This document shows, one piece after another, positions 4,127-64,000 of a DNA stretch of 64,000 nucleotides (positions within the stretch are counted from its first letter, which is position 1; each line of letters opens with the position of its first letter). The notes beneath the pieces are model-generated. The model had not been told where the DNA came from and did no database searches. It saw only the letters and a program-made list of their open reading frames with translations. A program made the translations under genes and the position numbers. The stretch lies in contig JAAHII010000002.1 of NCBI GenBank assembly GCA_010671905.1, positions 310,001 through 374,000 on the forward strand. The letters run 5' to 3'. Source of the DNA: Leptolyngbya sp. SIOISBB. GTDB lineage: Bacteria > Cyanobacteriota > Cyanobacteriia > Phormidesmidales > Phormidesmidaceae.

Positions 4127-4169
4127 TTCCTCGACTCACCAATCACTGCTGGTTTACACGTGCAACATC

Positions 4170-36188: not shown

Positions 36189-36556
36189 CGCCTCGACATT
36201 TCCCCATATCCCACTCCGATTAGCCAGACAAGGAATGGCTTCTCTGCCAGGAGGGGGCGGACGAAAAAGTTTCCCCAATTACTGCAGCCAATAAAGGAGA
36301 TGCTGGAGGACATGGTCGAAGACTCAGTTCGTCAGTTGATTTGATTACGACTAACTGGCAAGCAGAACAGGAGCAACGCAAAGAAGCAGGCAAGCCCGAC
36401 CTCCCCGATGCCGTTTCATTCATCCTGCAGGTTGATCCCGCTGCCTTTGACGCCGATAACCTCAAGAGCTTCGGCATTGAAGTCGTTGCTGACTTAGAAG
36501 AAGGCTATATCATCGGTGCCTCGACAGACACTGAGCTATCCGAACTCAGGAAAAAG

Positions 36557-38133: not shown

Positions 38134-40408
38134 GGAAAAAGATTGAAAAGTGCATAAATGCTCAACGCGGTGGTGGTCAAGTTCCAGCGATTTGGGAAAT
38201 TTTGGAGGGCACCAATCGGCCTGAATTCATTCTGTCTGACCAACTCAGAGCTGATTGGGACCAGATTCAGGACCACCAGGAATACATTGTCGACGTCGGG
38301 ATCTCCTGTATCGATATCCAAGAGCAATATTCTCGATGCCCCCAAAGGGAAAGCTACAAGACTGATGAAAGTTTCCAACAAGGAATTGAAAGATGGTTAT
38401 CCAAACACAATCTCACTCGCGAGGAATGGGATAACCTCTACTTCAAGCGTTCGGACAAGCTAGAAGAGTTTGTCCGGCAATATCGGGGAGAGATTCTGAA
38501 CAACGTTGAAGGAAATGAAATTGGCGTCTCACGCCTACCTGATAGCTTCTCTTGTCGAATTCGTATCTCTGGAAAGGGATTGAAAGATCTTGTCCTCAAT
38601 TTTCCCTACATTTTTGATGTATGTGAGTACGAGGACGTTGATCTTCCCCCTGTCGATCCAGATGCCCGTGGGGATGATCGCGATGGTTTTAACCTGGAGC
38701 CACCTGAGCCTAATGCCCCTAAAGTTTGCGTCATTGACAGTGGGATCCAAGAACGCCATCCTCTGCTCAGAGGAGTGATCGACGAGCCCAATTCAAGATC
38801 CTGGGTACCTGGAGAGCTTGATCAGACGGCAGACTACGTGCCCAATGGCGGACATGGCACTAGAGTCGCCGGAGCCGTGCTCTATCCGCGTGAAGTTCCC
38901 CGAACAGGGCAACTTCAGCCTATATGTTGGCTCCAAAACGCGAGGATTCTGGATCGCAACAACCATCTTCCTAGAAACGTATTTCCTCCAGAGGTGCTAG
39001 AAGAGATTGTCGCTTTCTACTTCAGGCGTACCAGAACTCGCCTGTTCAATCACTCCATTACCAGCATCACCCCTTGCCGAACCCAATTCATGACCGCCTG
39101 GGCCGCTGCTATCGACAAACTCACTTGGAACGTAGGGGGAGACCTGCTCTTCATCGTGGCAGCCGGAAATCTAAATGCGAGAGGTGATTACCCGACTCGT
39201 CCTGCGATCGCTGCCCATTTAAGCGCTGGTAGAAGCTATCCAGACTACTTGCTCTCCCCGTCCGTAAGAATCGCCAGCCCAGCACAAAGTTTTCAAACCC
39301 TGACAGTCGGTTCCATTGCTCATGCTACGTATGATTCGCCCCCTCTGCGATCGCTTGCCGACGCCGACGGTCCGTCCGCCTTCTCCTGCACAGGTTTGGG
39401 GATCTGGAACACCATCAAACCCGAAGTGGTCGAATACGGCGGCGACTATGTCATAGATTCCAGCATTCCGCCTAATTTCATCACGCCTGAACCTGTCTGC
39501 CCTGAATTAGTGCGTTCTACCCGAGATGGCGGCCCAGTCGTTAGCCGGAATACCGTCGGCACGTCATTTGCCGCCCCTAAAGTCACCCACATTGCAGCCG
39601 CATTGGCAGCCGCATACCCAGAAGCCAGCGCTCTACTCTACCGCGCCCTGATTGTTCAGTCAGCCCGCTTACCCACCTGGGCAGAAGAATCTGATGAAAA
39701 GCGTTACCACGCTATCCGGACAATGGGCTATGGCATTCCTGACCTCGACCGAGCTTTAGGCAATTCTCCTAGCCGAATCACCCTAACGACTCCAAGCAGT
39801 GAGTCTATAAAAGCTCGACAGGCCAAGGTTTATCAGGTTGCAATTCCGGATTTTCTACTCAGGGAAGGCGAGGGCTATGACATCCGCATCGAAATCACCC
39901 TCTCCTACGCTGCTGAGCCTCGCCGCACCCGCCGCGATCGCCGCAAGTACCTCTCCACTTGGCTCGATTGGACCTGTAGTAAACGAGGAGAAGACCCAGA
40001 CGCCTTTCTTGCCAAAGTCCTCAAAGAATACGATCAAGCCTCACCCGACGCTGAAAATGGAGAAAGTAGCTTTCCCTGGACTTTAGGGAAAAGGCGAGCA
40101 AGAAAACGCGATGATGGCACAGTTCCCTCGCAGGGGATCGATGGCATCGTCAAGGAGGTTTCCCGAAGTGCAGGAACCATTCAGAAGGATTGGGCGATCG
40201 TCAAATCATACGAGCTTCGCGAGGGGTTCTGCATCGCCGTAGTGGGTCATGAAGGTTGGAACAAAGACTCAGAAGCCACCGTGCCCTATTGCCTGGTTGT
40301 CAGCTTCGAGGCCATTAATTCTGAAGTGCCTATCTACGAAGCCTTTGCTCAGATTCAACAACCTTTGCAGGTTCAACAGCAGCAACAAGTCAGTATGACG
40401 GTAAGTAG

Positions 40409-40498
40409 ATGAGCCTAATTAAACGTAGTCCTGAATCGCTGGAAGTCTTTCAGCTCCATGATCGAGATGCTGATTACTTAGGTCTACCTACTGATTAG
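40409..40498 (+). CDS. Possible 29-residue coupled ORF after ietS
   Basis: An ATG overlaps the protease stop codon (ATGA at 40409-40412) and opens a 29-codon frame ending at TAG 40496-40498. The overlap would allow translational coupling. The peptide is not recognised. It may be the remaining start of a deleted third gene or chance. Confidence 0.25.
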   Translation: MSLIKRSPESLEVFQLHDRDADYLGLPTD

Positions 40499-47840: not shown

Positions 47841-49170
47841 CGCTGTGCGTTCATCAGCGGCTTCCCAATCCCAGAGGTGAGAGAGGGTGACCGGCATTCT
47901 CGGTGTAGCGCAGGAACTTTTGCCTTTCGCTACCTGCCCGTCCTTGCGGCGGGTCAGCTTCAGTTTGTCAGCCAAGTATCGGGCAGCAATGTTATAGCTT
48001 GCGCTGAGGTCACAGCTATATTGCTTGCCGCTCGCAAACGTCGCTAACTCGTACTGGGTCTTAGACCGTTGCACCTGGCCACTCCCGTCAAAGGCCCAGG
48101 AGGAAGTGCCCCGAGCATAGACATACTCCGTCTTGCCGCCCTCTTCCTGAAACTTTTGTTCAGTTAGGGTAACTAAGCGACGGTGCAGCCAACCGTGAAA
48201 CTTTTGCTTCCAGGTTAGACCGTTTTCTACCCCCTTTGGGACGCCAGCCTTTCAAGTCTTCAAAGACGATAGTACTGGCTCCATACTCCAGAGCAAAATT
48301 GACGATTTGCCGGGAAACCTGCTGAGCAATATTGGCGTTGATGCCTTTGCCTTTGCGGTACGGCGTTTTGGCAAAGCCACGGTGCAACCTTTGGGTCTTT
48401 CGAGCCTTGCGTCGGATGATGCGGGCCTGTTTATCTCGACGGTCTATGTCAGAGGCCGGATGCATGAACTGCCGCGCCAATACAGTGCCGTCAGGACGAA
48501 CAATCGAAGCTGTCGCCAAGGTGTTAATCCCTACATCTACAGCGCACACCACATCGGTTTCCCACTTGGGTGGAACGATACCGAAGGGCACTGCCAAATG
48601 ACAGTGTTTCTTCGAAATCACTAGAGAGGGGGATTTGATGGAGCCGATGAGATGCCGTTGCCGCTTACTGGTAATCGAGACTTCCGCCCAGACCCAATCA
48701 GAGCCGTTCCAAACCTTAATCCAGGCCCTCAGCAAGTGAGCATCGAACTTCACCAACTGCCCTTTGTAGAGGACCGGATAACATCCAGCATCCACATTGA
48801 AGACAGGTGGCTTGGCCTCCCGACGCTGCCGCACCCCTGACTGCCATTGCCGATATCGAGTCAGGTAGGACGAAACCTGTCCTTTGACAAACTCGATAGC
48901 TGCCCGCCTGAGATAAGACGGGAACTTGTAAAATCGCTTCTCGAAGTAGAGATATTTCGGGCTTGGGTTCTTACGGGTGCGGTGAATGAGTTGTTCCGTT
49001 GCCGCACAGAAGCTTGTTGCGGCCACCAACTCCGGCCAGTGGCCCATGACCACATAGCTCAGCGCCTTGCAGTAAGCTCGGTACTCGTCAACCGTGGCCA
49101 ACAGGTGAAGCCTCACTTCAGGCGACGGTTGCAAAGGCCATTTATCTGTGCGTACAATTGTCCTACTCAT
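47835..49170 (-). pseudogene. tnpB: TnpB RNA-guided nuclease, frameshifted
   Basis: From ATG 49170 the protein has the TnpB N-terminal domain and RuvC motifs: Asp in AVDVGINTLATASI and Glu in IVFEDLKGWRPKG. At the G5 run near 48237-48242 one extra base shifts the frame. The continuation encodes WKQKFHGWLHRRLVTLTEQK and CDLSASYNIAARYL, which carries the third RuvC Asp. The zinc-ribbon cysteines usual between the last two RuvC motifs are not evident, as in many cyanobacterial TnpBs. Repaired length is about 445 aa. Confidence 0.82.
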
Positions 49171-49651
49171 GGTGAAGTTGTACCACAGGCAGCGAGATTT
49201 CGCGACCTTCAAAACCCAGAACCATAGCGCTTATCGGTTGTGCTATCACCTTGTTCTATCCATGCAGTATCGCCACAGATGCTTGAGTGCTCAGATGCTG
49301 GACCGGTTGGAAGCAATCTTTACGGACTTGCTGGCTAAGTGGGGAGGGGGATTGATTGAGTTTGGCGGGGAACCTGACCATGTTCATCTGCTGTTCGAGG
49401 TTGACCCCACGATTCGGCTGTCTGACTGAGTGAAGAACTTGAAGTCAGTATCCGCCCGAAAGATGCGCCAGGCGTTTGCCGATGCACTACGGCCCTTCTA
49501 CTGGAAGCCCTATTTCTGGAATCGGGCCTATGGCCTAATCACGACTGGAGGAAGAGCCAGTATCGAAACTCTATTGAAGTACATCGAAAATCAGGATGAC
49601 CCGCGAAAACTTCGTCCGCCGCTAACTAGCGGCGGCTTTGCTCAACGGTGA
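49169..49651 (+). pseudogene. tnpA: TnpA Y1 (HUH) transposase with a nonsense codon
   Basis: The frame carries the HUH motif (PDHVHLLFEV), the lysine-rich SVSARKMRQAF helix and the Y1 tyrosine in ETLLKYIENQ. It is interrupted by TGA at 49427-49429, where relatives usually have Leu after IRLSD; the frame continues unchanged after it. ATG 49169 shares the CATG palindrome with the tnpB start. The element would need a TnpA in trans to move. Confidence 0.85.
49616..49635. repeat. IS605 end hairpin
   Basis: Perfect inverted repeat CCGCCGCT / AGCGGCGG separated by AACT, near the end of tnpA. It is typical of the single-strand hairpin bound by TnpA at the ends of IS200/IS605 elements. Confidence 0.7.
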
Positions 49652-49858: not shown

Positions 49859-50107
49859 ACGATACAGCAGCAGTAGAGGTTGGGCAAGACGCAGCACAAA
49901 ACGGTATTACGGCCATCTCCGATAGGATGTTGCTGGACTACATCACCAACAAGCCTGTCAAAGACAACGGCAAAGAGCAGGTGCGGTAGCGGATCGCAAG
50001 ATCGCAGTTCCATGAGTACGGCATCAACGTGGAAGGCGTAGGGCTGGACTTCAAGATTCCCAGGGTAGGCCACAACAAGAATGCTTGCCACCTCATACTA
50101 AGAATGC
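49859..50107 (+). pseudogene. Decayed duplicate of the methyltransferase gene start
   Basis: The plus-strand frame reads GITAISDRMLLDYITNKP, VKDNGKEQVR, stop, RIARSQFHEYGINVE, LDFKIP. It matches residues about 20-75 of the N6 methyltransferase encoded at 51578 (GVTAIPDGMLLDYITNKP, KDNSKEQVRQRIARALFHEY). There are no indels over about 190 bp, but a TAG at 49987-49989 replaces the CAG of the intact gene, and similarity stops near 50091. It is 1.7 kb upstream of the intact gene on the same strand. It is either a remnant of an earlier system copy or a partial duplication. Confidence 0.85.
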
Positions 50108-51577: not shown

Positions 51578-53707
51578 ATGGCAAATAGTTCGGTAGAGCA
51601 GACGGTAATCGAAACCAACCACCAGGAGGACGACGGTGTTACCGCCATCCCGGATGGGATGCTGCTGGACTACATAACTAATAAGCCCTTCAAAGACAAC
51701 AGCAAAGAGCAGGTGCGGCAGCGGATTGCGCGGGCGCTGTTCCATGAGTACGGCATCAATGTGGAAGACATGGAGCCGGACTTCAAGATTCCTATTGGGG
51801 GTCGCAATAAGAAGGTCAGCATTGCGATCTTTCGGCACGGTAAGGAGCATGAGCTAGAGAACGTGCGGCGGGTGGTGGTCTGCGAGAAGGAGCCCACCGG
51901 GCGGGGCATCACCAAGATGCGATCGCACGACCAGGCGAAGAAAGACCTACAGGTGCTGCAAGACTTTATGGCAGCGGCTGAAAATTGTGACTATGGGTTG
52001 TGGACCAACGGTCTGGAGTTCTTTTTTTTGGAGAAGGAAGTGACCCGGTTTGACGTGAAGTTCAAGCCGGTGGGTGACTGGCCCATGGGAGATGAGACCC
52101 TGGGTACCCGTGATGTGGCTTCCATTGCGCGGATGCGGAAGGCAGATCCAGAACTGCTGCGGGTGACGTTTCGCCGCTGTCACAACTTCATTCACGGCAA
52201 TGAGGGAATGTCGAAGGATGTAGCCTTTCGGCAGTTCCTGTATCTAATTTTTGCCAAGATGCACGATGAGCGAAACCGCAACGGTCATGAGCCGCGATTC
52301 TGGGCCGGGGCAGAGGAACAGTTTACGGATGAAGGACGGAAGGCGATTCGAGAGCGCATTGAACCTCTATTCGAGGAAGTCAAGCAGCAATATGGCCCCA
52401 AGCCAGTTCAGGAAGACTCTTTAGACAAGAAAACCAATCCTGATAACGAGAAGCCAAAACAAGCAAGTATTTTTCAGGGGAATGAGCAGATTGAGCTGTC
52501 GGATCGCGCCCTGGCGTTTATGGTGTCGGAACTGGCGAAGTATGACTTCAACCGCACCGATATTGACGCGAAGGGGGCGGCCTATCAAGAAATTGTGGGA
52601 GACAACCTGCGGGGCGATCGCGGCCAGTATTTCACCCCAAGGGGAGCCATCAAGCTGATGGTGGATATGCTGGATCCGCAGCCCCATGAACGGGTGTTGG
52701 ACCCGGCCTGTGGCACGGGAGGATTCTTGATTAGCACGGTGAACCACCTGCTGAAGCAGCGCCAGAAGGTGGAGGGGATTGACCCAGCAGATGAGTCTAC
52801 GACGGAGTTTTTGTCGCTGAAAGCAGAAATCAAGGAGTATGTGGAGACGAACCTGTTTGGGGCGGACTTTGACCCGGCGCTGGTGAAGACCTCGAAGATG
52901 AACCTGATGATGTCTGCCAATGCTGAGGGGGATGTCTTTCATATGGATTCGTTGGCGTTTCCGAAGGGGCACCTGGATGGCAATGACCCGGCGAAGGAGG
53001 CGATTCCGCTGGGGTCGATTGATGTGCTGATGACGAATCCGCCGTTTGGATCGGATATTCCCATTAGCGATCCGATGATTTTGAATGCCTATGAGCTGTC
53101 GGCTAAATGGAACAAGCGCAAGGACGATGGCTCATTTGTTCGAGGGGATGGCTACCAGACGGCGGTGGCTCCGGAGATTCTGTTTATTCAGCGGAGTATT
53201 GATTGGCTGAGACCGGGGGGACGCATGGGCATTGTGTTGCCCGACGGCATTTTGGGCAATCCGGGGGATGAGTACATTCGGAGCTGGATTCTCAAGCACT
53301 GCTGGGTGCTGGCCAGTGTAGACCTGCCGGTGGAGGTGTTTATCGTTGAGGCGAATGTGAACATTCTCACCAGTCTGCTGTTCTTGAAGAAGAAGACGGA
53401 TCAGGAGATGAAGGCTGAAGCCCTGGGCCAGGTGACGGAGTATCCGGTGTTTATGGCGGTGGCTGAAAAGGTTGGCTTTGACCGACGGGGTAATACGCTC
53501 TATAAGCGCAGCCCGGATGGTGAAGAACTGGTGGAAACGGTTATTGAGACGGAAACGATTCGGCTTAGTGGAGAGAAAGTGAAGCGTATCCTTCGCCGCA
53601 AGCAAAAAATTATTGACGATGATCTACCTAGAATCGGCGAGGCTTATCACGAATTTCGAGCAAAGAATCCTGAGCCGGGTTTACCAAGAAGGAAAGTAGC
53701 CGCTTAA
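51578..53707 (+). CDS. mad2: N6-adenine DNA methyltransferase (MAD2/HsdM-like)
   Basis: The 709-aa protein has an N-terminal region of about 200 residues resembling the HsdR-type nuclease domain (DYITNKP...EQVRQRIARALFHEYG, VVVCEKEPTG). A helical HsdM N-terminal domain follows, then the methyltransferase core with motif I DPACGTGGF (about 374) and motif IV NPPFGSD (about 487), and a long C-terminal helical region. The usual nuclease Asp before the E-x-K pair seems replaced (KKVSIAIF), so that domain may only bind DNA. It is predicted to methylate adenine for self-marking together with the specificity subunit 8 nt downstream. Assignment to MAD2 rests on its place in the operon with a NERD-kinase giant. 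A plain type I HsdM is the alternative, but no hsdR is present here. Confidence 0.75.
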   Translation: MANSSVEQTVIETNHQEDDGVTAIPDGMLLDYITNKPFKDNSKEQVRQRIARALFHEYGINVEDMEPDFKIPIGGRNKKVSIAIFRHGKEHELENVRRVVVCEKEPTGRGITKMRSHDQAKKDLQVLQDFMAAAENCDYGLWTNGLEFFFLEKEVTRFDVKFKPVGDWPMGDETLGTRDVASIARMRKADPELLRVTFRRCHNFIHGNEGMSKDVAFRQFLYLIFAKMHDERNRNGHEPRFWAGAEEQFTDEGRKAIRERIEPLFEEVKQQYGPKPVQEDSLDKKTNPDNEKPKQASIFQGNEQIELSDRALAFMVSELAKYDFNRTDIDAKGAAYQEIVGDNLRGDRGQYFTPRGAIKLMVDMLDPQPHERVLDPACGTGGFLISTVNHLLKQRQKVEGIDPADESTTEFLSLKAEIKEYVETNLFGADFDPALVKTSKMNLMMSANAEGDVFHMDSLAFPKGHLDGNDPAKEAIPLGSIDVLMTNPPFGSDIPISDPMILNAYELSAKWNKRKDDGSFVRGDGYQTAVAPEILFIQRSIDWLRPGGRMGIVLPDGILGNPGDEYIRSWILKHCWVLASVDLPVEVFIVEANVNILTSLLFLKKKTDQEMKAEALGQVTEYPVFMAVAEKVGFDRRGNTLYKRSPDGEELVETVIETETIRLSGEKVKRILRRKQKIIDDDLPRIGEAYHEFRAKNPEPGLPRRKVAA

Positions 53708-53715
53708 TCGAGTTT

Positions 53716-55104
53716 ATGAAGGTTAAAAGCGTTCCAAGTCGATGGATTTATGAAGAAGGGCTGCGCCTGGACTGCGGCCCATATATGTCTGGTGCGGTAG
53801 AAGCCAGAAAATTATTAGAAGATATTTCCATGCCAACAGAGCCTCTTAAAGAGATTACAGAAAACGGACTGGCAGGTATTTATCATGCTGGCCGAATCAA
53901 AAGGCTTTGGGTTGACTCTCCAAAGCATGGCTATCCGTTCCTGTCCAGTACAGATATTCTGCAAGCTGATTTATCAGAGTTGAGGAATATTTCAAAAATT
54001 TCTGTTGATGAAAATCCACAGTTAATCATTCAAAAAGATTGGACTCTAATCACTCGTTCTGGATCTATTGGGAAAACAGCCTATGCCAGAGCCGAAATGA
54101 ATGGTATGGCTTGTACAGAAGATGTTCTTCGTGTTGTTCCTGATGACCAAAAAGTTCTTCCTGGATATCTCTACACATACTTGAGTAGCAAATTTGGCAT
54201 GCCTCTAGTTACATCAGGAACGTACGGAGCCATTATTCAACATATAGAACCACACCACATAGCTGACATTCCTGTTCCACGAATCACAAGTGAAATCGAG
54301 ACAAAAATACATAACTTAATTCAATCTGCTGCTGATCTCCGTTCTGAAGCCAATCGTAAAAGACAAGAGGCTATCAACAAAGTTGAACAAGAACTTAACT
54401 GGAATTCCAAAGAGTTATATGGTCTATCGAACATTGTTGATTCAAATCAGCTAATTCGACGTTTTGATGGTTTTTATCACTCACACTCTATAGCTTCTGC
54501 TAGAAACACCTTGGCATCACATCCAGACTCGATTCTCCTTGAAAAAGTTGTAAAGGAAGTCTTTGAGCCGAATCGTGGAGCAAGAATTAAAGTTAAAGAT
54601 CTAGATTATGGTGTCCCTTTTCTTTCCTCATCAGAGGTTTTTCGTCTTGATCCAACTGGAGAATACTTAGTCTCCAAAAATATGCCTCATTTCGAAAGGC
54701 TCCTTATCTATGAAAACGATCTTCTTTTACCTCGTAGTGGGCAAGTAGGAGGAATTATTGGACGTGCTGTTCTTCCGCTAGCAACTAATTACGGCCATGC
54801 TGCAACAGAGCACCTGGTTCGGATACGTTGTTCTAGTCGGGAAGATGCTTGGTTGCTTTGGGCAATTTTTGCTTCTCAACCAGGATATTACGCCGCCATA
54901 GGAACTGCTTACGGTACCTCAATTCCAAGCTTGGATTGTGAGCTGCTGTCCCAGCTTCAGATCCCTTGGATTCAAGGAGAATTTAGGGAAGAAATCGTTG
55001 AATTGGTTTCTCAGAAAATCACAAAACTGACAGAAGCCATTCATAAAGAGCGGACTGCAATCCAAATGCTGGAAAACCACATCGAAAGTCTGGAGGCAGC
55101 CTGA
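53716..55104 (+). CDS. mad5: Type I-like specificity subunit (MAD5/HsdS-like)
   Basis: The 462-aa protein has the two-half layout of HsdS. The first target-recognition domain spans about residues 1-190 (YPFLSSTDILQADLSEL, then GTYGAIIQHIEPHHIADIPVP) and is followed by a coiled-coil spacer (SAADLRSEANRKRQEAINKVE). The second target-recognition domain (VPFLSSSEVFRLDP, then TSIPSLDCELLSQLQIPW) ends in a C-terminal helix. The gene is more AT-rich than its neighbours, as is common for exchangeable recognition domains. Its stop overlaps the start of the kinase gene (TGATG), so translation is coupled. It would set the methylation sequence of the system. Confidence 0.85.
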   Translation: MKVKSVPSRWIYEEGLRLDCGPYMSGAVEARKLLEDISMPTEPLKEITENGLAGIYHAGRIKRLWVDSPKHGYPFLSSTDILQADLSELRNISKISVDENPQLIIQKDWTLITRSGSIGKTAYARAEMNGMACTEDVLRVVPDDQKVLPGYLYTYLSSKFGMPLVTSGTYGAIIQHIEPHHIADIPVPRITSEIETKIHNLIQSAADLRSEANRKRQEAINKVEQELNWNSKELYGLSNIVDSNQLIRRFDGFYHSHSIASARNTLASHPDSILLEKVVKEVFEPNRGARIKVKDLDYGVPFLSSSEVFRLDPTGEYLVSKNMPHFERLLIYENDLLLPRSGQVGGIIGRAVLPLATNYGHAATEHLVRIRCSSREDAWLLWAIFASQPGYYAAIGTAYGTSIPSLDCELLSQLQIPWIQGEFREEIVELVSQKITKLTEAIHKERTAIQMLENHIESLEAA

Positions 55105-58100
55105 TGGCAAAAGTGATTGCGATCGGCCAACCCATCAACGATGCTGAACGCCTCGTCATCGCCCACCTTCGCGATCATCTTCCCGACACCTACACCCTTG
55201 TCCATAACTTCGAAATCACCCGCTACAACCAAGACTTCGAAGTCGATATCGCCCTCCTTGCTCCCCACGCCGTTTACCTCATCGACGTGAAAGGTACCCG
55301 TGGCACCATCAACGTCTACGGCTCCAAATGGTATCCCGAAGGTCGCCAGCCCTTCACCTCTCCCCTGCTCAAACTCAAAGGCCATGCCCGTGCCCTCAAA
55401 GGGCTAATCACCGACAGCAACCCCGCCCGTCCTGAAATTGACCGACTCTACGTCGATGCCGTAGTCGTGCTCCCCGCTCCCGATGCCACCCTCAACGACG
55501 ATCGCGGCAAAGACAAAAAAGCCACCACCACCCTCAAACGGGCCGAGCGCTTCTTCAAAGACAGCACCCGCATTCCCAACTGGGCCGAGCGCAACATTCG
55601 GGGCTTCCATCGCCTGGTGCTCAACGCCCTGCAAGCCAACAGTCGCCCCATCTCTGGCCCCGCACAACTCGGTAACTGGGTGCTCCTAGACGATGGTGAC
55701 AACAACAGCGACTATTGCCGTGTCTACAATGCCGCCGCTGGTCCTAGATCCGGTACTGCTCTACTTCGGGCTTACAAAGCCGATGCCTATCTCACAGACC
55801 CTGAAGTAAAAGCCCAACAGCAGGCTCGCATACGAAATGCCTACGTCGCCCTCAACTCCATGCCGCCCCATCCCAACATTCTGGGCGTGCGAGACTTTTT
55901 TGCCAGCGAGATGGAAGACTACTTCTACCTCGTCACCGACGATGTTCCCGGTAACGTCCTCAAGCTCTACTTCGAAAAGTCCGACCTGGCCCTCACCTAC
56001 GACCAAAAGCTCAAAATTGCCCAAGACATTTTCTCCGCCCTCCACTACGCCCACCGACACCACAACATTCACCGCAATCTCAACCCCAGCGCCGTTCTAG
56101 TCGGCACCAACGGCCAGACCTACCTGATTGACTTCGACTACGCCCGCACCGGCACCCAGCGCAGCCACACCATTGCCGGAGAAATCACCGAACAGCTCGA
56201 CAAAGACTACCTCGCCCCCGAATGCCAGGGGGGCAACCTGGCCGCCGCTAGCCCCGCTTCTGACGTGTTTGCCGCTGGGCTGCTGCTCTACGAACTGTTC
56301 ACCGGCCAAAAGCCCTTCGACGACCCCAGCGACTGCCGCAGTCGGGAGGCCATCTTCCCTGTCAAGCCCTCCGACCAGGAGCCCGACCTGCCCACCGGCT
56401 TTGATGACTGGCTTCAGAGCCTCTGTACCTTTGCCATCCAGGAACGCCCCACCGCCAAACAAGCCTGGACCCAGCTCCGAACCCTGATCCGCGAGGCCAA
56501 AGCCCAACCGGCTAAGTCCAAACCCGAACCACCACCGACACCGCCCGAACCCGCCGAACCGCCCGCCGAACTCGACTACCGTAACCTGGCCCCCGATACC
56601 CAGCTAGGCCGTAAGTTTCGGGTGGAGAAAAAGCTGGGGGAAGGCACCTTTGGCGTGGTTTACCAGGTGATCGATACTCTGGCGGACATGCGGCTCGTCA
56701 TCAAAATCATCCTGAAAGACCGCTATTCGGTTATCGAGCGGTTGAAGAAAGAGTTTCGACCGCTGCGGGGGCTGCCCGACCATCCCAACGTGGTCAAAGT
56801 CTTCTATCCAGACTTTTTACCCAACGAGGGGCCGCCCTTCATCGCCTTTGCCTATGTGGAGGGCATCGATGTCAAAGACATGGTCAAAGAGCGGCTGTTT
56901 TCCCCAGATGATGGTTTGCGGCTGGCCCTGGATGTAGCAGCAGGGCTAGACCATATCCACAACCACGACGTTTGTCATTGCGACATTAAGCCCAGCAACC
57001 TGCTGTGGACCGACGAAGGCACCAAAATCATCGACTTTAACGTCTCGGTGCAGGTGGGGCGCGGCGGCTCCCACGGTGGGGGTTCCCTGCGCTATCTGCC
57101 CCCCGATCTCGACCTCGACAGTGATGCCCAGAAGGCCGACCTGGTAGACCGAGATCTCTATGCCCTGGGGGTCACCCTCTATGAAGTCATCACCGGCTAC
57201 TATCCCTGGGAAACGGCTCAGCCCCCCGCCGGACAACCCGCCAAAGCCCCCCGCGACTATTCCGGCCTGACGGACCTGGCCCCCGAACTCGCCGACCTGA
57301 TGTTAAAGCTAATTTCCCCTAAAAAGTGCGATCGCTTCCAGACCGCTGCCGATTTGCTCCATGCTTTCCAGCAAATTCAGCAAGCCCGCCGCCTGCCGCC
57401 ACCCCCCGAAACCGATGTCACCCTATCCCACCTGGGGCGGGAGAGTGAAACGGGGAATCCCTTTGTCAGCTATCTGGTCACCCTGTACAGCCAGAGCCAC
57501 CGCAGCAACGCCGGTACCCGTGGGCTGGATGCCCTGGGCAACAAAACCTACGTCAATACCCTACTGGATGATGAGCTGCTGCCCGCCGTCCTCCAGGGGG
57601 AGTTCAAGCTGGTGATTATTACTGGGAACGCCGGGGATGGCAAAACCGCCTTTTTGCAAAAGCTAGAGCTGTATGCCGCTGAGCAGGGGGGCATCCTGGA
57701 CCATCAGCACAACGGCTGCCGCATGGAATTCGACGGTCGCACCTACCTCAGCAACTACGACGGCAGCCAGGACGAAGGCGAACAAACCAACGATGCCGTG
57801 CTTGATGCTTTCTTTGCCCCCTTTGCCGGAGAAAAGGCCAGCCAGTGGCAGCCTGCAGAAGTACGCCTAATTGCTATCAACGAGGGACGGCTGATTGACT
57901 TCCTCACCAGCCGAGGGGAAACCTTTGTCCAACTTAAGGAAGTGGTGTCTCGGGGGCTGCAAACCGGGCTGCCGGAAGCCGGGGTAGCCATCCTCAACCT
58001 CAACCTCCGCAGCGTGGTGGCCGATGTGCCCGACCGCGATGGCTCTATTCTGGAGCGGCAGCTCCGCAAGCTCACTCACCCCACCTTCTGGGAAGCCTGC

Positions 58101-59240
58101 AAGACCTGTGAGATTGCCGATCGCTGCTATGCCCTGCATAATGCCCAAACCTTCCAGGACCCCACCGCTGGGGAGAAAGTGGTCGAGCGGATTAAGACCC
58201 TCTACACCCTGACCCACCTGCGAAATCGGCTCCACATTACCCTGCGGGACCTGCGCTCTGCCCTCTCCTACCTGCTGGTGAGCGATCGCACCTGTGAGGA
58301 GATCAAACAGCTCTACAACGGCTATGCCCCCGATGCCCGCGAGGCCATCTTAGACAGCTATTACTTCAACAGTTGGCGCGGCGGCGAAAGGGAAAACAGA
58401 GATCGCTTGCTGACCCTGTTGAAGGATGTGGATATCGGCAACGCCACCGACGCCCGCTTAGACCGGGAGCTAGACTTCATGGCTCCGATGGCCGGGGGGC
58501 AACGCTTCACTTTTGAGCAGCGGTCGAACTTTGACCAGCAAATCTTCACCACCGTTTTTGAAGAACTGCCCCGCGATTTTTCCGGCATCGGTGGGCGCGA
58601 TCGCTTTGACGCTCACCGTCGTTATGTGGCCTCCCTCCGTCGTCGCTACTTCTTTGAGCAACGGGCTGAAGGCTGGCACCGGCTGTTGCCCTACCGCAGT
58701 GCCACTACCTTGCTAGACCTGCTCCAAAGTCATCCTCTGCCCGACCATGCTCTGCCTCGTGTGCTTTCGGCCATTAACCGGGGCGAAGGACTGACCAATC
58801 CCGAACGGCTGCAGGGGGACTTAGCGCTCCAGGTGCGGGAAGTGGAAAATGGCACCATCCGCAGCTATCGGATTTTTGGGTGCGATCGCTTTACTCTGGC
58901 CATTTACGACCAGGCCGAAGCCGCCCGCTTTGTAGAGCACATGCCTAGCGGTCTTGTGTTGCAGCACCAGGGCACTGCCAGCACCGACGCTGAGCTGATT
59001 ATCGACCTCGATATGTTCGAAATGCTAGAGCGGCTGAACGATGGGTACCGTCCCAGCATTGAACAGACCCAGGGGTATTATCTGAGCCTAGTGGTGTTCA
59101 AGAACCTGCTGGCCTCTGCCCCTTATCGGGAAGTCTTGCTGACCACCACTGGCCACGACTTTTACCGCGTTTGCCGGGAAGACTCTGGCCAACTCCAGTT
59201 TGATGCGCTCGATCAGGAGGTGGCCCATGGCGCTGTCTAA
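55104..59240 (+). CDS. mad6: NERD, double kinase and P-loop ATPase giant (MAD6/PglW-like)
   Basis: This 1378-aa protein starts with a NERD nuclease-related domain (about 1-115; DFEVDIALL then YLIDVKGTRG). A first kinase-like domain (about 200-450) has HRN in place of HRD (about 322) and DFD in place of DFG (about 343), so it is probably a pseudokinase. A proline-rich linker (about 470-495) follows. A second kinase (about 499-760) has GEGTFGVVY, HCDIKPSN (about 624) and IIDFN. The last 540 residues are an ATPase-like region with Walker A GNAGDGKTA (about 841) and two or more CxxC-type cysteine pairs (CKTCEIADRC). The NERD-kinase arrangement matches PglW of BREX type 2 and the MAD6 kinase of MADS. 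It overlaps both neighbours, so it is a core operon member. Confidence 0.8.
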   Translation: MAKVIAIGQPINDAERLVIAHLRDHLPDTYTLVHNFEITRYNQDFEVDIALLAPHAVYLIDVKGTRGTINVYGSKWYPEGRQPFTSPLLKLKGHARALKGLITDSNPARPEIDRLYVDAVVVLPAPDATLNDDRGKDKKATTTLKRAERFFKDSTRIPNWAERNIRGFHRLVLNALQANSRPISGPAQLGNWVLLDDGDNNSDYCRVYNAAAGPRSGTALLRAYKADAYLTDPEVKAQQQARIRNAYVALNSMPPHPNILGVRDFFASEMEDYFYLVTDDVPGNVLKLYFEKSDLALTYDQKLKIAQDIFSALHYAHRHHNIHRNLNPSAVLVGTNGQTYLIDFDYARTGTQRSHTIAGEITEQLDKDYLAPECQGGNLAAASPASDVFAAGLLLYELFTGQKPFDDPSDCRSREAIFPVKPSDQEPDLPTGFDDWLQSLCTFAIQERPTAKQAWTQLRTLIREAKAQPAKSKPEPPPTPPEPAEPPAELDYRNLAPDTQLGRKFRVEKKLGEGTFGVVYQVIDTLADMRLVIKIILKDRYSVIERLKKEFRPLRGLPDHPNVVKVFYPDFLPNEGPPFIAFAYVEGIDVKDMVKERLFSPDDGLRLALDVAAGLDHIHNHDVCHCDIKPSNLLWTDEGTKIIDFNVSVQVGRGGSHGGGSLRYLPPDLDLDSDAQKADLVDRDLYALGVTLYEVITGYYPWETAQPPAGQPAKAPRDYSGLTDLAPELADLMLKLISPKKCDRFQTAADLLHAFQQIQQARRLPPPPETDVTLSHLGRESETGNPFVSYLVTLYSQSHRSNAGTRGLDALGNKTYVNTLLDDELLPAVLQGEFKLVIITGNAGDGKTAFLQKLELYAAEQGGILDHQHNGCRMEFDGRTYLSNYDGSQDEGEQTNDAVLDAFFAPFAGEKASQWQPAEVRLIAINEGRLIDFLTSRGETFVQLKEVVSRGLQTGLPEAGVAILNLNLRSVVADVPDRDGSILERQLRKLTHPTFWEACKTCEIADRCYALHNAQTFQDPTAGEKVVERIKTLYTLTHLRNRLHITLRDLRSALSYLLVSDRTCEEIKQLYNGYAPDAREAILDSYYFNSWRGGERENRDRLLTLLKDVDIGNATDARLDRELDFMAPMAGGQRFTFEQRSNFDQQIFTTVFEELPRDFSGIGGRDRFDAHRRYVASLRRRYFFEQRAEGWHRLLPYRSATTLLDLLQSHPLPDHALPRVLSAINRGEGLTNPERLQGDLALQVREVENGTIRSYRIFGCDRFTLAIYDQAEAARFVEHMPSGLVLQHQGTASTDAELIIDLDMFEMLERLNDGYRPSIEQTQGYYLSLVVFKNLLASAPYREVLLTTTGHDFYRVCREDSGQLQFDALDQEVAHGAV

Positions 59241-60846
59241 ACGCGATAGCGAGTTTCGCTTACCTCGCATTAGTTACCTGGAATTCAAATTCACCGATAT
59301 GGATCGGGTACTGACGGCCTTCTTTGCCCGTCTCTGGCATGGCGGTGCGCCCAGTCGATTAAGCCGTAACTTCACTTTGGAAGTTGAAACCTTTGTTGAC
59401 TTTGCCTTAGAGCATCCCGAACTGTTCAATGGGTTTGCCGACCATCGCAACATTCTAGAGCGTTGGATGAGCACCCACCTGATGGATATGGTGAATCGCG
59501 GCAAGGGCGACAAAGAAGCGGTCGCTGCTCCCCGGCCCCTACATGGGTTTACCTATCGCCTGCGCAATCCCAAGCATTCCAGAGACTATGGCACCTCTCA
59601 GCAGCTCTATGAGATGCTGTACCACGCTAAAGGCGGCAGTGATGCACTGGATCAGCTCAAGCAGTTCTTTTTCCCTGGTATTGACCCGGTGACCCATCAG
59701 CAAAACCAGGATGCGGTAGATGTGGAGACCCAGGCACTCTTACACCTGCCCATGACCATCTCGGATGCTCCCGATACCAATAAACGAGGAGATCAGTGTC
59801 CTCCGGTGTGTCAAAGTTCAGGCAACCTCCTGGCAGAGGATGTGAAACGACTGCTGTTTTACCAGAGCTTCATCCCGCGATCGGTGATGGTGGAATATCT
59901 CAAAATTCTCTTTGCCTTCCACCTGGCCCTGTATCACCTGCGTCTGCTCAAACTCATCCCCGAAATGGTGAAGCGCCAGGGAGGCTTGACCTGGGGAGAT
60001 AAACCTTACTCCATGGGTATCCTGGTGGATGTGGCGAATCGACCGGACACGGACATTGCCGGTCTGGCTGAGTACAGCGCCGATTTCCACTTTCGCCGCA
60101 TCCCTAACTTTGTCAAAGCCCACTATGCCCTTCGTAAGCTGGATGAGTTCGGCAAACACCTGGTCAAAGTCGGCAAACTGAATAAGCAGACGGAGGAACA
60201 GTTCACCGTCACCGAAGTGGCCGCGCTGCAGGGTTCCATCTACAAAAACGAACGAGACCCGTTCTTCAAACAGCGTCTGGCCGGACTGCTGGAAGACAGC
60301 GGCAGCAATAGCGAAGAGCTGGATCCGGAAACCCAGGCGATCGTCAGCATGGACTTACCGGCTTTCGAAACCTACATTGAAATCCTGACGGCCCTCCGAG
60401 GGGAGTACCATCGCCGCTACATTACCCAGTGTCTGGACTCTCTGACCCTCAAAAATCGTCCAGGGGCCTTCCTGACCCAGGCCCGAACCCGTAACTCTCC
60501 CCGAAAATTCATCTTGGACAGCCGCTTGCTGGAGGTACTGCTACAAATCGCTGTGCTTCGGCCTGGCGGCAGTCTGGGCTTTTACAGCGGCCCCATGCGT
60601 ATTAATGAACTGCTCGGCTTTTTACGGGAGCGCTATGGCCTATACGTCGATCAATTGCCTGATGGAGATGGGTTTGGTCCGGCCAGTATTACCGAACGGC
60701 AGGCCCTGCAGGAAAATCGCCGCGCTTTTACGTCTCGTTTGCGTGAGGTAGGCTTCTACCGCGATTTGTCTGACGCTTATATCTCTCAGACTGTTACTCC
60801 CCGATACGAGATTGGTTTGGAAACTTCTACCGTGAAGCAATCATAG
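59227..60846 (+). CDS. mad7: Uncharacterised defence-operon protein (MAD7-like)
   Basis: ATG 59227 is preferred because AGGAGG ends 6 nt upstream; it overlaps the end of the kinase gene by 14 nt. The 539-aa protein has no motif I can name. It is mostly helical, with conserved-looking segments FARLWHGGAPSRLSR, KEAVAAPRPLHGFTYRLRNP, GSLGFYSGPMRINELLGFL and a C-terminal DLSDAYISQTVTPRYEI. No signal peptide or transmembrane helix is seen. The label MAD7 comes from position between the NERD-kinase giant and a large ATP-binding protein, and should be checked by profile search. Confidence 0.55.
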   Translation: MALSKRDSEFRLPRISYLEFKFTDMDRVLTAFFARLWHGGAPSRLSRNFTLEVETFVDFALEHPELFNGFADHRNILERWMSTHLMDMVNRGKGDKEAVAAPRPLHGFTYRLRNPKHSRDYGTSQQLYEMLYHAKGGSDALDQLKQFFFPGIDPVTHQQNQDAVDVETQALLHLPMTISDAPDTNKRGDQCPPVCQSSGNLLAEDVKRLLFYQSFIPRSVMVEYLKILFAFHLALYHLRLLKLIPEMVKRQGGLTWGDKPYSMGILVDVANRPDTDIAGLAEYSADFHFRRIPNFVKAHYALRKLDEFGKHLVKVGKLNKQTEEQFTVTEVAALQGSIYKNERDPFFKQRLAGLLEDSGSNSEELDPETQAIVSMDLPAFETYIEILTALRGEYHRRYITQCLDSLTLKNRPGAFLTQARTRNSPRKFILDSRLLEVLLQIAVLRPGGSLGFYSGPMRINELLGFLRERYGLYVDQLPDGDGFGPASITERQALQENRRAFTSRLREVGFYRDLSDAYISQTVTPRYEIGLETSTVKQS

Positions 60847-60855
60847 AGAATTGTT

Positions 60856-63800
60856 ATGGCACAAGGGCTTCAGGAACTCAATGGTCATGAACTTGCCGCT
60901 GCTCTAGAGCAGGTACTGTTGCCGTTATTGGCTGAGCAGGTTTGCGCTCGCCAACCGGGTCACTGTATGCGAGTGTCCAACCTCAGCACCGATTTGATGG
61001 TGCGTCTCTGTAGCGGCCTACGAGCAGAGGTTCCTGATTCTGAAGTCGTGTTGCTCTGGGACGGTAGGGCTGGGTCAATTCCCTCAGAGATGACCGTTAC
61101 CGGCACCAAACTGGTAGAGCTGCGTAATCCGCTTCCCGATGGTACCCAGCGCCCTCCTCTGCTGGTATTTATTCCTGATGACTTACGCACCTCTGCCGAA
61201 GACTCATTCGGGGTGGCCACCTTCGAAGACCTGCAGATTGGAGATGTCTACAAGCAGGTTGTGAGCGAACTGCTCAATCGTTTACCCACTGGCCTGCAAA
61301 ACCCATTACAGGAGATTGTGCGACGTTTAGTCGATAAAGCATGGCCCTATGCCGAATCAAAGGCGATCGCTCGTTTCTTGCTCACTATCGAAGTAAACGA
61401 GTTCGATCCCGCTGTCGTCGGGGCAGCGCTATTTGAAGTGTGCTTGGTGCCCGATTTTGAATTGCTAAGTGACCCCGCCAAAGTCATTCAGCGACTCGAC
61501 CGAAATCGGGACTGTGTTAGTACCCTCACCTGGTCTCCTAAATCTGAACGCTTGCGAGTCTTAGACCTGGACTTGGCGAACCGAGCCTTTCGCAATAAGC
61601 TTGCCAACTTTCTGGTTGAAGTCGGTCTTGAGGATCCCCGCCAGTGGACCCGCCGCATTGTTCTTGACCGCAACCTTTGGGAGTTTGCCTTTAACCGCTG
61701 GCAGTTTGAAGATGAGGGAGAAGACGCAGGCACCATTGCTTTGGAAGTAACGGGTCTGGAACTGCCCACAGTTGAGGAAGACGAAGAGGATCCTCGATTG
61801 GGAGATCTGCTGGGGCAAAAGATTCTCCCGGTCGGGAAGAAAGGACTGCGGAAGTTTTCGGTGAGCCTCCAAACCGACCCTCACCCCTCTAAGGTGCCAG
61901 GTCTGGCAAAGTTCGCGGCTCAGGTCATCTCCGTCGAAGCTGGCCCTGTCGGATTAGTCAGAACCAAATCCGTCTGGAAATCTAAGAAAGCCGAAGCCAC
62001 CATCTCTTTTTCTCGCTACAGCAAAGTGGATTGGGAAGAAGGATGGCATTTTGTGCGCATCGTCCCGCTGACTGACTCTGGCGACCTGTTGCCCCTGGTC
62101 GATGCCAGTGGACAGCCAGTCCCCTGGGGCGGCGAATCTGAGGGAGCGGTCGGGGTCTATCCTCATGAAAGCGATCTGTTCTATGTCTTGCCCGATGATG
62201 AGCTCGATATTGCGCCCGTTCAGCGAGCGAAACAGCGAGAATCTAGTCTGGTTCATGCTCAGCTGCGCCTACAGTTCATCGCTCTCCAGGATGAGCGCGA
62301 TCCAGACATGATTCAGCCGACGGGTGTAGAGTGGGCTGCTAAGTCTAACCGTTCCACCTCCACCACAAACTTTATTGAGATCAAATTCGGTCGGGAAGGC
62401 AGCGTCAATATTCCGGTCTCGGAAACCCTGAAGGTGATTGAGCAAAAGATTCTGGCCGAGCCAGCAGGCAGCGTGAACTGGCATTTATCCATTGATGCCG
62501 GTGTTGTGGGCACCAGCACCAGCCGACGCTCCGTTTGGCCCCAAGATGGCCCGACTCAACGATTCTTACAAGCGCGATCGCAGTACTTTGAAGCCGTTAG
62601 TCAGGAACAGCTGCATCTGATTACCCAGGCAGCAGACTTTTATCAACTACAGCTTCTGGTGTCAGACTATGCCAGCACCTACCAGGTAGCTCTACAGCAT
62701 CAAATACAGCTTGCTAATCAGTCTGACGGAGACACGAAGAAGCGAGCCCTGGCGGCCCTCAAAACTTTACTGGCGGTTGATACCATCGCAGTCACCATTA
62801 CCGATTACCGGGGCCGTATCCGTGAAGCCGCTCTCGTAAGTCCGACGCATCCTCTGAGAGCATTGTGGTTGGCCACCTGGGCGCAAGTGGGTAAGAACTG
62901 GCTCAAGCAGGCGGCTCAAAGTGCTGACGAATTTGTCGTATCTACCCGTGACACCCTACTGCGGTCTATGGCTCCCGTCAGCTTTCCGCCTGTCCTTACT
63001 TTGGGCAGCAGCCAGGTACTCACGGCCATTGATAACATTCATCCCCTGTGGACTCTCTATGCCCCTTCAAAGGAGGACGATCCACGCGGCTTAATCAGCG
63101 ACATTTGTACCGCATTTAGCCTGGATGAGCCCGGTATTGGTGGAGCCACCATTGATGGAGCCTATCTGGCCCAGCGCCTCAAGCGATACCTGGTCCAGCA
63201 CCCCTATGTCCGGACTCTAACCATCAACGCCTTCAACCCAGGGCAGGGAGCTGTCCTGGCGGATATGCTGCTAGAGCTTCAAAAAGCTCAGCCCTTCACC
63301 GATCTGAACTATGACATCCGCCTCTTCGTGCCGGATCCAGATGCCATGGGAGTCGGCAGTGCTCTCTTCAATCTGCTATCTCCCACTTCCTCAACCGCAG
63401 CCCAAGAAGCGGATAATTTTTCGACCCCCAGCAAGAACCATCTCTATCCCAAACTAAGCTTGGCGATTCGAGGGGCGCAGGAATTCCAACGCTCTCCCGA
63501 TCAGCATCTGGCCCACATAAGCATCCTGTTCGATGTTTTTCCGGCAGAACAGGTGTCCGCTGAGCCTGCCTCCAACAAAGACGTGACCACTCCCGTACAT
63601 GGCTTATATCAAACCTTTGAAGTCGATTACTTCGAGGATGACAGCACAGTGCGCTGGAACCGCAAGCCTAAGCACGGTAAAGTCCTACCGTGCAAAGACT
63701 GTAGTGCTTTAAGTGATTTGCTTTCGGGCCTACCCGCAATTATGTCCCAGGCGACGGCTGCGATCGCCACCGGACGCACCGGCCTCGACCTTCGTCCTGT

Positions 63801-64000
63801 GCTAGCCCTAGCTCTCGACGAGGATGACCGGGCCATGATCGTGCGCGTTCATGAGGTCAGCGACTGGGTGATTACCATCGATCGCAACATGGGCATCGAG
63901 TTCTATGACCACGGGCAGCGTAAGAATCGTCCCGACTACCTGATTGATCACTCACCAGAGCAGGCATCCAATCTGGGCCATAGCCTGGTGATTACCTCCC
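60856..64000 (+). CDS. mad8: Large DptH/FtsK-like protein (MAD8-like), cut by window end
   Basis: ATG 60856 opens 1048 codons that remain open to the last base, 9 nt after the previous gene. The N-terminal 110 residues (VVLLWDGRAG, LVELRNP, LLVFIPDDLRTSAEDSFGVA) and the later segments SPTHPLRALWLATWAQ, TINAFNPGQGA and DWVITIDRNMGIEF resemble the large ATP-binding proteins (DptH-type, FtsK/HerA-like) found in phosphorothioation and MADS loci. The Walker motifs expected further on are outside the window. These proteins are thought to act as DNA translocases or nuclease platforms in restriction. The frame shows no interruption over 3.1 kb. Confidence 0.65.
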   Translation, partial: MAQGLQELNGHELAAALEQVLLPLLAEQVCARQPGHCMRVSNLSTDLMVRLCSGLRAEVPDSEVVLLWDGRAGSIPSEMTVTGTKLVELRNPLPDGTQRPPLLVFIPDDLRTSAEDSFGVATFEDLQIGDVYKQVVSELLNRLPTGLQNPLQEIVRRLVDKAWPYAESKAIARFLLTIEVNEFDPAVVGAALFEVCLVPDFELLSDPAKVIQRLDRNRDCVSTLTWSPKSERLRVLDLDLANRAFRNKLANFLVEVGLEDPRQWTRRIVLDRNLWEFAFNRWQFEDEGEDAGTIALEVTGLELPTVEEDEEDPRLGDLLGQKILPVGKKGLRKFSVSLQTDPHPSKVPGLAKFAAQVISVEAGPVGLVRTKSVWKSKKAEATISFSRYSKVDWEEGWHFVRIVPLTDSGDLLPLVDASGQPVPWGGESEGAVGVYPHESDLFYVLPDDELDIAPVQRAKQRESSLVHAQLRLQFIALQDERDPDMIQPTGVEWAAKSNRSTSTTNFIEIKFGREGSVNIPVSETLKVIEQKILAEPAGSVNWHLSIDAGVVGTSTSRRSVWPQDGPTQRFLQARSQYFEAVSQEQLHLITQAADFYQLQLLVSDYASTYQVALQHQIQLANQSDGDTKKRALAALKTLLAVDTIAVTITDYRGRIREAALVSPTHPLRALWLATWAQVGKNWLKQAAQSADEFVVSTRDTLLRSMAPVSFPPVLTLGSSQVLTAIDNIHPLWTLYAPSKEDDPRGLISDICTAFSLDEPGIGGATIDGAYLAQRLKRYLVQHPYVRTLTINAFNPGQGAVLADMLLELQKAQPFTDLNYDIRLFVPDPDAMGVGSALFNLLSPTSSTAAQEADNFSTPSKNHLYPKLSLAIRGAQEFQRSPDQHLAHISILFDVFPAEQVSAEPASNKDVTTPVHGLYQTFEVDYFEDDSTVRWNRKPKHGKVLPCKDCSALSDLLSGLPAIMSQATAAIATGRTGLDLRPVLALALDEDDRAMIVRVHEVSDWVITIDRNMGIEFYDHGQRKNRPDYLIDHSPEQASNLGHSLVITS

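What the first reader, a model, noticed from the sequence alone, without database searches (positions are those of the whole stretch)
51578..64000. Compact MADS-like defence operon in a cyanobacterium
Five tightly coupled genes (methyltransferase, specificity subunit, NERD-kinase-ATPase giant, unknown, DptH-like) match the order MAD2-5-6-7-8 of the methylation-associated defence system. MAD1 (HTH), MAD3 and MAD4 are absent from their expected places: there is only 8 nt between the methyltransferase and specificity genes. This would be a reduced or rearranged MADS, or a MADS-like relative closer to BREX type 2. All five reading frames are open, in contrast to the broken systems to the left.
Basis: partly seen in the sequence, partly recalled or inferred. 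Interest (0 to 1): 0.85.

Follow-up and report, generated by a model that had tools for sequence, protein, structure and literature searches.

The report
Rearranged MADS anti-phage operon, cyanobacterium
This is a genuine member of a recently described bacterial anti-virus system (MADS) in a cyanobacterium; two of the three genes thought missing are simply next door, beyond the window and on the other strand, and the parts suggest it works by methylating its own DNA and attacking unmethylated DNA with a machine related to the Dnd/Ssp restriction complexes.

Summary
The five genes are real, open and tightly coupled, and all score above NCBI's curated cut-offs for MAD2, MAD5, MAD6, MAD7 and MAD8. 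mad8 runs on to 66402. The locus is therefore MADS, not BREX type 2 or type I R-M. Two premises of the finding fail. First, mad3 and mad4 are not lost: they lie directly behind mad8 on the opposite strand, tail to tail (window numbering 66407-68308), with mad4's frame interrupted near its end. Only mad1 is not found. Second, the compact order (1)-2-5-6-7-8 is not peculiar: about 18 of 40 other informative loci lack 3/4 between 2 and 5. None of those loci has 3/4 displaced as here. A congener has a 92-96% identical core with no mad3/4 and a different MAD5, so 3/4 is a presence/absence cassette and the specificity gene is swapped. Mechanism (inferred): MAD2-MAD5 mark self DNA; MAD6C-MAD7-MAD8 are relatives of SspFGH/DndFGH, with a PD-(D/E)XK-like nuclease and a HerA/FtsK-like translocase; MAD3-MAD4 are an OLD-like ATPase-TOPRIM pair. 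A new arrangement of a known system, of moderate interest.

The parts
51578..53707 (+). mad2: N6-adenine DNA methyltransferase (GTGG at residue 379, NPPF at 487), 709 aa
   Evidence: NF047738 1012 bits vs cut-off 720; PF02384 2e-35; motifs
53716..55104 (+). mad5: type I-like specificity subunit, 462 aa; GC 41.6% against 53-59% in its neighbours; only 29% identical to MAD5 of the congener
   Evidence: NF047740 519 vs 400; identity; GC
55104..59240 (+). mad6: NERD nuclease-like domain, degenerate kinase (HRN/DFD), second kinase (LVIK, HCD, DFN), SspF/DndF-like P-loop domain (GNAGDGKT at 841), 1378 aa
   Evidence: NF047741 767 vs 460; Pfam NERD and two Pkinase stretches; motifs; profile match of the C-terminal half to SspF, E 1.4e-14
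59227..60846 (+). mad7: SspG/DndG-like protein, 539 aa
   Evidence: NF047733 662 vs 410; PADLOC SspG 4e-7; profile match to SspG, E 2.5e-9
60856..64000 (+). mad8: SspH/DndH-like protein, 1848 aa in all; the gene runs on to 66402 in window numbering (L002:10856-16402). PD-(D/E)XK-like motif RTDLALFD...LVEVK (1151-1174), HerA/FtsK-like ATPase (GVQGGGKS 1490, VVFDEAHK 1720). BEYOND THE WINDOW, on the - strand: mad4 at 66407-67043 (L003:3407-4043), OLD-type TOPRIM-fold protein whose frame is interrupted at 66573, its conserved last ~53 residues continuing in another frame to a stop 4 nt from the mad8 stop; and mad3 at 67040-68308 (L003:4040-5308), ABC/AAA_21-type ATPase, 422 aa, Walker A GANGSGK and EELENG intact
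   Evidence: mad8: NF047742 234-235 vs 175; PADLOC mad8 8e-44 and DndH 6e-7; motifs in all 41 rows aligned. mad4: NF047734 185.7 vs 160, frames, model of a homologue matches OLD TOPRIM at Z 10.4. mad3: NF047739 501 vs 420, PF13304 3e-26
49900..50103 (+). decayed fragment of the 5' end of a second mad2 (codons 19-86, in-frame stop)
   Evidence: 68% aa identity, E 6e-23; 82% over 181 nt; NF047738 36.6 bits with one TAG

Best explanation
This is a MADS (methylation-associated defence) locus on a 463 kb, probably circular second replicon of a cyanobacterium, with mad3-mad4 displaced behind mad8 and with mad1 missing. MAD2 with MAD5 methylates adenine at a MAD5-chosen sequence and so marks the host DNA. 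MAD6, MAD7 and MAD8 form a restriction machine related to SspFGH/DndFGH: MAD7 (SspG/DndG-like) helps recognise DNA, MAD6 senses the signal through its P-loop domain and kinase pair, and MAD8 translocates on unmarked DNA with its HerA/FtsK-like ATPase and cuts or nicks it with its PD-(D/E)XK-like domain; the NERD domain of MAD6 may be a second nuclease. MAD3-MAD4 is an accessory OLD-like ATPase/TOPRIM pair that the core can do without. Shown: gene content, order, homologies, conserved motifs, presence/absence of the cassette. Inferred: every biochemical activity, the target of the kinase, the role of MAD3-MAD4, and whether the locus is active.
For: Curated cut-offs passed for MAD2, 5, 6, 7, 8 and for MAD3, MAD4. 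Canonical 1-2-3-4-5-6-7-8 on a Piscinibacter plasmid with 57% identical MAD7 and in about 20 other loci. MAD6 C-terminal half aligns with SspF over 481 columns (E 1.4e-14); MAD7 with SspG (E 2.5e-9); MAD8 with SspH (PADLOC mad8 model on a SspH, 6.6e-20) and DndH (6e-7). A cyanobacterial Dnd/Ssp-type locus encodes one 1430 aa protein made of a PglW-like kinase half plus SspF (SspF 2e-210, PglW 7e-59), followed by SspG, which links the two systems. HerA relatives in PDB by profile (best solved relatives 7e-6 and weaker). The nuclease-domain model finds McrC, HamA, SduA, Shedu and restriction enzymes (best Z 7.4). SspFGH damages DNA lacking the mark (PMC8092258); DndH has a REase followed by a HerA/FtsK domain, and some DndF carry NERD and tandem kinases (PMC10853773). 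mad3/4 presence changes at least 7 times on the MAD7 tree of 41 loci.
Against: No activity was measured. The MAD8 nuclease-fold support is middling (Z 7.4, Foldseek E not significant). The mark and its motif are unknown. mad4 is interrupted and mad1 not found, so the system may be unregulated or partly dead. A direct profile comparison of MAD8 with a single SspH failed. The MADS paper itself (Maestri et al. 2024) is not held, so its own deletion data could not be compared.
Confidence: 0.8

Rival explanations
1. A decaying MADS: the locus is a former eight-gene system losing parts (mad1 gone, mad4 broken, a mad2 fragment upstream), no longer a working defence.
For: mad4 interrupted; mad1 not found; mad2 relic upstream; in the congener mad2 has an in-frame TAG and mad5 a frameshift; broken DISARM-like DrmD and a split IetAS lie to the left in the window.
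Against: About 15 kb of mad2-5-6-7-8 is open with conserved motifs intact; many loci do without 3/4. The contig ends overlap imperfectly (93%, gapped), so a single indel in mad4 may be an assembly error.
Confidence: 0.25
2. BREX type 2/Pgl relative: the kinase gene is PglW and the system belongs to BREX.
For: MAD6 matches PglW over the NERD-kinase half (172 bits; 1e-52).
Against: 172 vs a cut-off of 990; the match stops at the kinase and the C-terminal half is SspF-like; no PglZ reaches its cut-off in the genome.
Confidence: 0.02
3. mad3-mad4 is not part of this system but an independent OLD/PARIS-like two-gene defence that happens to lie behind mad8.
For: Opposite strand, own start, absent from the congener with a near-identical core; unique position among surveyed loci; OLD-like fold.
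Against: Both genes pass the MAD3/MAD4 equivalog cut-offs, families otherwise seen here only between mad2 and mad5; in the whole genome MAD4 is found only here.
Confidence: 0.2

Closest known systems
MADS of Maestri et al. 2024 (Cell Host Microbe 32:1412; NCBIfam NF047733, NF047734, NF047738-NF047742); canonical example read here: Piscinibacter gummiphilus plasmid NZ_CP136338.1
   Same: All of MAD2-MAD8 present above curated cut-offs; order 2-5-6-7-8; MAD6 is the same fused NERD-kinase-ATPase protein.
   Different: mad1 not found; mad3-mad4 moved behind mad8 on the opposite strand, in convergent order; mad4 frame interrupted.
Compact MADS without mad3/mad4 (e.g. Sorangium cellulosum So ce26, Methylosinus sp. 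Ce-a6, Cyanobium sp. Cruz-8D1, Bacteroides plasmids)
   Same: mad2 directly followed by mad5-6-7-8.
   Different: Those loci show no mad3/4 within the ~21 kb looked at; several keep mad1.
SspFGH / DndFGH (DptFGH) restriction modules of phosphorothioate systems
   Same: MAD6 C-terminal half, MAD7 and MAD8 are sequence relatives of SspF, SspG and SspH/DndH.
   Different: Self mark is made by an N6-adenine methyltransferase with a specificity subunit, not by DndABCDE/SspABCD; MAD6 carries NERD and kinases, which only some DndF/SspF do.
BREX type 2 (Pgl), PglW
   Same: NERD plus tandem kinase at the N-terminus of the large protein.
   Different: No PglZ; the PglW match does not extend into the C-terminal half; separate MAD5 specificity subunit.
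OLD family nucleases / PARIS AriA-AriB
   Same: MAD3 is an ABC/AAA_21-type ATPase, MAD4 has the OLD TOPRIM fold (Z 10.4).
   Different: Two separate proteins bound to a methylation system; sequence similarity of MAD4 to known TOPRIM proteins in PDB is not detectable.

Membership tests
MADS | MAD2 methyltransferase, MAD5 specificity, MAD6 kinase, MAD7, MAD8 in one operon | tested here: met
   All above NCBIfam equivalog cut-offs, contiguous on the + strand
MADS | MAD3 and MAD4 | tested here: met
   Both above cut-off, behind mad8 on the - strand; mad4 frame interrupted
MADS | MAD1 HTH gene in front of mad2 | tested here: not met
   A MAD1 profile from 23 loci finds nothing in the window, its flanks or near the genome's best HTH matches; the 18 genome-wide HTH matches are of a generic family that rings in all 14 controls
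MADS | Canonical order 1-2-3-4-5-6-7-8 | tested here: not met
   3-4 displaced and inverted; about 18 other loci also depart from it by lacking 3-4, so the order does not define membership
MADS | Methylation-dependent phage defence | not testable with these tools
   needs methylome and phage assays
BREX type 2 (Pgl) | PglW | tested here: not met
   172 bits vs cut-off 990
BREX type 2 (Pgl) | PglZ | tested here: not met
   best in genome 22.9 vs cut-off 25, on the other contig
Type I restriction-modification | HsdR translocase-nuclease with M and S | tested here: not met
   None of the genes following S in the operon or behind mad8 (mad6, mad7, mad8, mad4, mad3) is an HsdR by Pfam or NCBIfam; an HSDR_N_2 domain occurs only inside the MTase
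DndFGH/SspFGH restriction module | F, G and H homologues in order | tested here: met
   (distant relatives, own families)
DndFGH/SspFGH restriction module | Coupled to a phosphorothioate modification module | tested here: not met
   mad2-mad5 in its place; no Dnd/Ssp modification gene recognised among the operon genes and flanking proteins scanned

The most novel reading that the evidence does not exclude
MADS is a DndFGH/SspFGH-type restriction engine on which the phosphorothioate module has been replaced by a type I-like methyltransferase and specificity pair, and mad3-mad4 is a separately moving OLD-type cassette that plugs into or falls out of it; the cyanobacterial locus shows the cassette docked at a new site, the 3' end of mad8, in one congener and not in the other.
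Probability: 0.4. Interest if true: 0.6.

Novelty: new variant of a known kind. Interest (0 to 1): 0.42.

Why it matters
How MADS restricts phage is listed as unknown (PMC12904381). Tying MAD6C-7-8 to SspFGH/DndFGH makes the question testable at named residues. The comparison of two congeners, with the same engine but a different specificity subunit and with or without mad3-mad4, is a natural experiment on which parts are core and which are accessory.

Tried and rejected
The MADS paper is not held. BREX type 2 and type I R-M: rejected on cut-offs and missing genes. The idea that the NERD-kinase-ATPase fusion is unusual: rejected, MAD6 is 1363-1490 aa in the loci with a complete gene. mad1 in trans: generic HTH matches only. 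MAD8 against one SspH by profile: no usable alignment, so the link rests. MAD4 against PDB by sequence: nothing. Sequence affinity of MAD3/MAD4 to trace their source: identities point different ways (MAD4 nearer the Pseudomonas type, MAD3 undecided), so no claim. Rfam behind mad8: nothing. An 18-bp palindrome between the mad8 and mad4 ends may be a shared terminator or chance; not pursued. PARIS AriB did not appear among the MAD4 fold matches listed; OLD did.

Full report
Observation. The window is G000:C2:310001-374000 of a two-contig, 8.34 Mb genome. Five frames on the + strand are open and coupled as described: mad2 51578-53707, 8 nt gap, mad5 53716-55104, mad6 55104-59240, mad7 59227-60846, mad8 60856 onward. 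Beyond the window mad8 ends at 66402, 1848 aa. The genome has two PsaA/PsaB genes, a family that rings only in Synechococcus among the 14 controls, so the host is a cyanobacterium. The first 7 kb of the 463 kb contig repeat its last 7 kb at 93% with gaps: it is probably a circular replicon whose ends were not trimmed, assembled from reads with indel errors.

Identity. Each protein passes NCBI's curated equivalog cut-off for its MAD family: MAD2 1012/720, MAD5 519/400, MAD6 767/460, MAD7 662/410, MAD8 235/175. PADLOC agrees for mad5, mad6 and mad7, gives mad2 as the second-best match and, once mad8 is read to its end, finds mad8. MAD7 rings in no control genome and passes its cut-off in 2 of 386 genomes of the phylum, both of this genus.

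The 'missing' genes. Directly behind mad8, on the - strand, lie a 156-codon frame and a 422-codon frame. They pass the cut-offs for MAD4 (185.7/160) and MAD3 (501/420). MAD4's frame stops after KPP, whereas in 18 homologues the protein goes on for about 55 residues with invariant K162, C193, D195, W208, F209. The matching stretch is present in another frame (58.9 bits to the MAD4 profile), ending 4 nt from the mad8 stop. mad4 is therefore either truncated or a victim of an assembly indel. A MAD1 profile from 23 loci finds nothing in or near the locus; genome-wide matches to the short mad1 model belong to a generic HTH family that rings in every control.

How unusual is the order? A scan of public genomes gave 44 named loci encoding MAD7 relatives; with four plasmids and the congener they were mapped gene by gene. 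Twenty-one loci other than the window keep 3-4 between 2 and 5. About 18 others show 2 followed by 5 without 3-4; five of these keep mad1. Three (L049, L051, L052) have two mad2-like genes. In Aeromonas popoffii the tail of mad4 is left between mad2 and mad5, a direct trace of loss. No other locus has 3-4 behind mad8 within the stretches held. On the MAD7 tree the presence of 3-4 changes at least 7 times among 41 loci, for example between L025 and L028, which are sisters at 100/98.

The congener. G170 carries mad2-5-6-7-8 with MAD2, 6, 7, 8 at 92, 93, 96 and 96% identity, but MAD5 at 29%, and has no MAD3 above cut-off and no MAD4. DNA collinearity stops 8 nt before the mad8 stop and resumes about 2.04 kb later in the window genome but 57 bp later in G170. 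So mad4-mad3 is a presence/absence block at the end of mad8; whether gained here or lost there cannot be told. In G170 mad2 has an in-frame TAG and mad5 a frameshift while mad6-8 are open. A decayed mad2 5' end also lies upstream in the window at 49900-50103. The GC of mad5 (41.6%) departs from mad6 (58.9%) and the rest (53-54%), in keeping with exchange of the specificity gene.

What the parts do. MAD2: N6-adenine methyltransferase with GTGG and NPPF. MAD5: Methylase_S. MAD6: NERD, a kinase whose catalytic HRD reads HRN and DFG reads DFD, a second kinase with HCD and DFN, then a P-loop half. That half aligns with SspF over 481 columns, E 1.4e-14. MAD7 aligns with SspG, E 2.5e-9. The PADLOC mad8 model hits a cyanobacterial SspH at 6.6e-20 and the DndH model hits MAD8 at 6e-7. 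In another cyanobacterium a single 1430 aa protein has the MAD6-type kinase half and a full SspF (2e-210), followed by SspG, in a locus with DndB/DndC-like genes (the DndB/DndC naming is by eye). Rakesh et al. had already described NERD and tandem kinases on some DndF, and a REase plus a HerA/FtsK domain in DndH (PMC10853773; repeated in PMC12839542). MAD8 keeps R-[TA]-D...E-[VI]-K in all 41 rows and Walker A/B motifs; its ATPase finds HerA structures by profile; a model of its nuclease region (pLDDT 86) lists McrC, HamA, SduA, Shedu and restriction enzymes on top, but at Z 7.4 or less and without a significant Foldseek E-value. MAD3 has the ABC/AAA_21 motifs. A MAD4 model (pLDDT 92) matches the OLD TOPRIM region at Z 10.4, with OLD in five of the six best entries.

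Mechanism. The best-supported reading is self-marking by MAD2-MAD5 and attack on unmarked DNA by an SspFGH/DndFGH-like engine (MAD6C-7-8). SspFGH is toxic and damages DNA when the mark is missing (PMC8092258), which predicts the same here. The role of the kinase pair and of MAD3-MAD4 is inference: sensing or regulation, and a back-up OLD-like nuclease.

Verdict. MADS is confirmed; 'reduced' and 'closer to BREX type 2' are not. The new element is the displaced, inverted, polymorphic mad3-mad4 cassette. This is an ordinary member in its core, with an unusual arrangement and a clear mechanistic hypothesis.

Noticed in passing
49900-50103: Decayed 5' fragment of a second mad2 (68% aa identity, in-frame stop), 1.5 kb upstream of the intact gene; its wording (NKPVKDN) is nearer the congener's mad2.
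   Followed up: partly
L016:7455-13441: In another cyanobacterium a 1430 aa kinase-kinase-SspF fusion followed by SspG in a locus with DndB/DndC-like genes: a MAD6-type architecture coupled to a phosphorothioate-type module.
   Followed up: partly
L015:4066-7839: Congener G170: mad2 with an in-frame TAG and mad5 with a frameshift, while mad6-mad8 are open; a modification-dead, restriction-open MADS unless these are assembly errors.
   Followed up: partly
L049, L051, L052 (about 1-4450): Two mad2-like methyltransferase genes in tandem before mad5-6-7-8 in Methylomonas, Gemmatimonadota and Thiogranum MAGs; the second lies where mad3/4 would be.
   Followed up: no
L011:23118-23783 and L013:23022-23684: Bacteroidota compact MADS loci carry a gene annotated (L011) as a PP2C-type phosphatase directly behind mad8, a possible counterpart to the MAD6 kinase.
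   Followed up: no
L042:4180-4520: Aeromonas popoffii MADS with mad3 and most of mad4 deleted, the tail of mad4 left between mad2 and mad5.
   Followed up: yes
35139-40412: IetA- and IetS-like genes separated by a transposase-like pair (36592-38111).
   Followed up: no
32530-34098 (-): Two pieces of a DrmD-like (DISARM) helicase in separate frames.
   Followed up: no
48160-49429: TnpB-like gene and a short transposase-like frame next to the mad2 relic.
   Followed up: no
L086:1-6837 and L087:13131-20000: First and last 7 kb of contig C2 are 93% identical with gaps: likely a circular replicon with untrimmed, error-bearing ends.
   Followed up: partly
L003:3400-3417: 18-bp perfect palindrome TGAACGTCTAGACGTTCA between the convergent ends of mad8 and mad4.
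   Followed up: no
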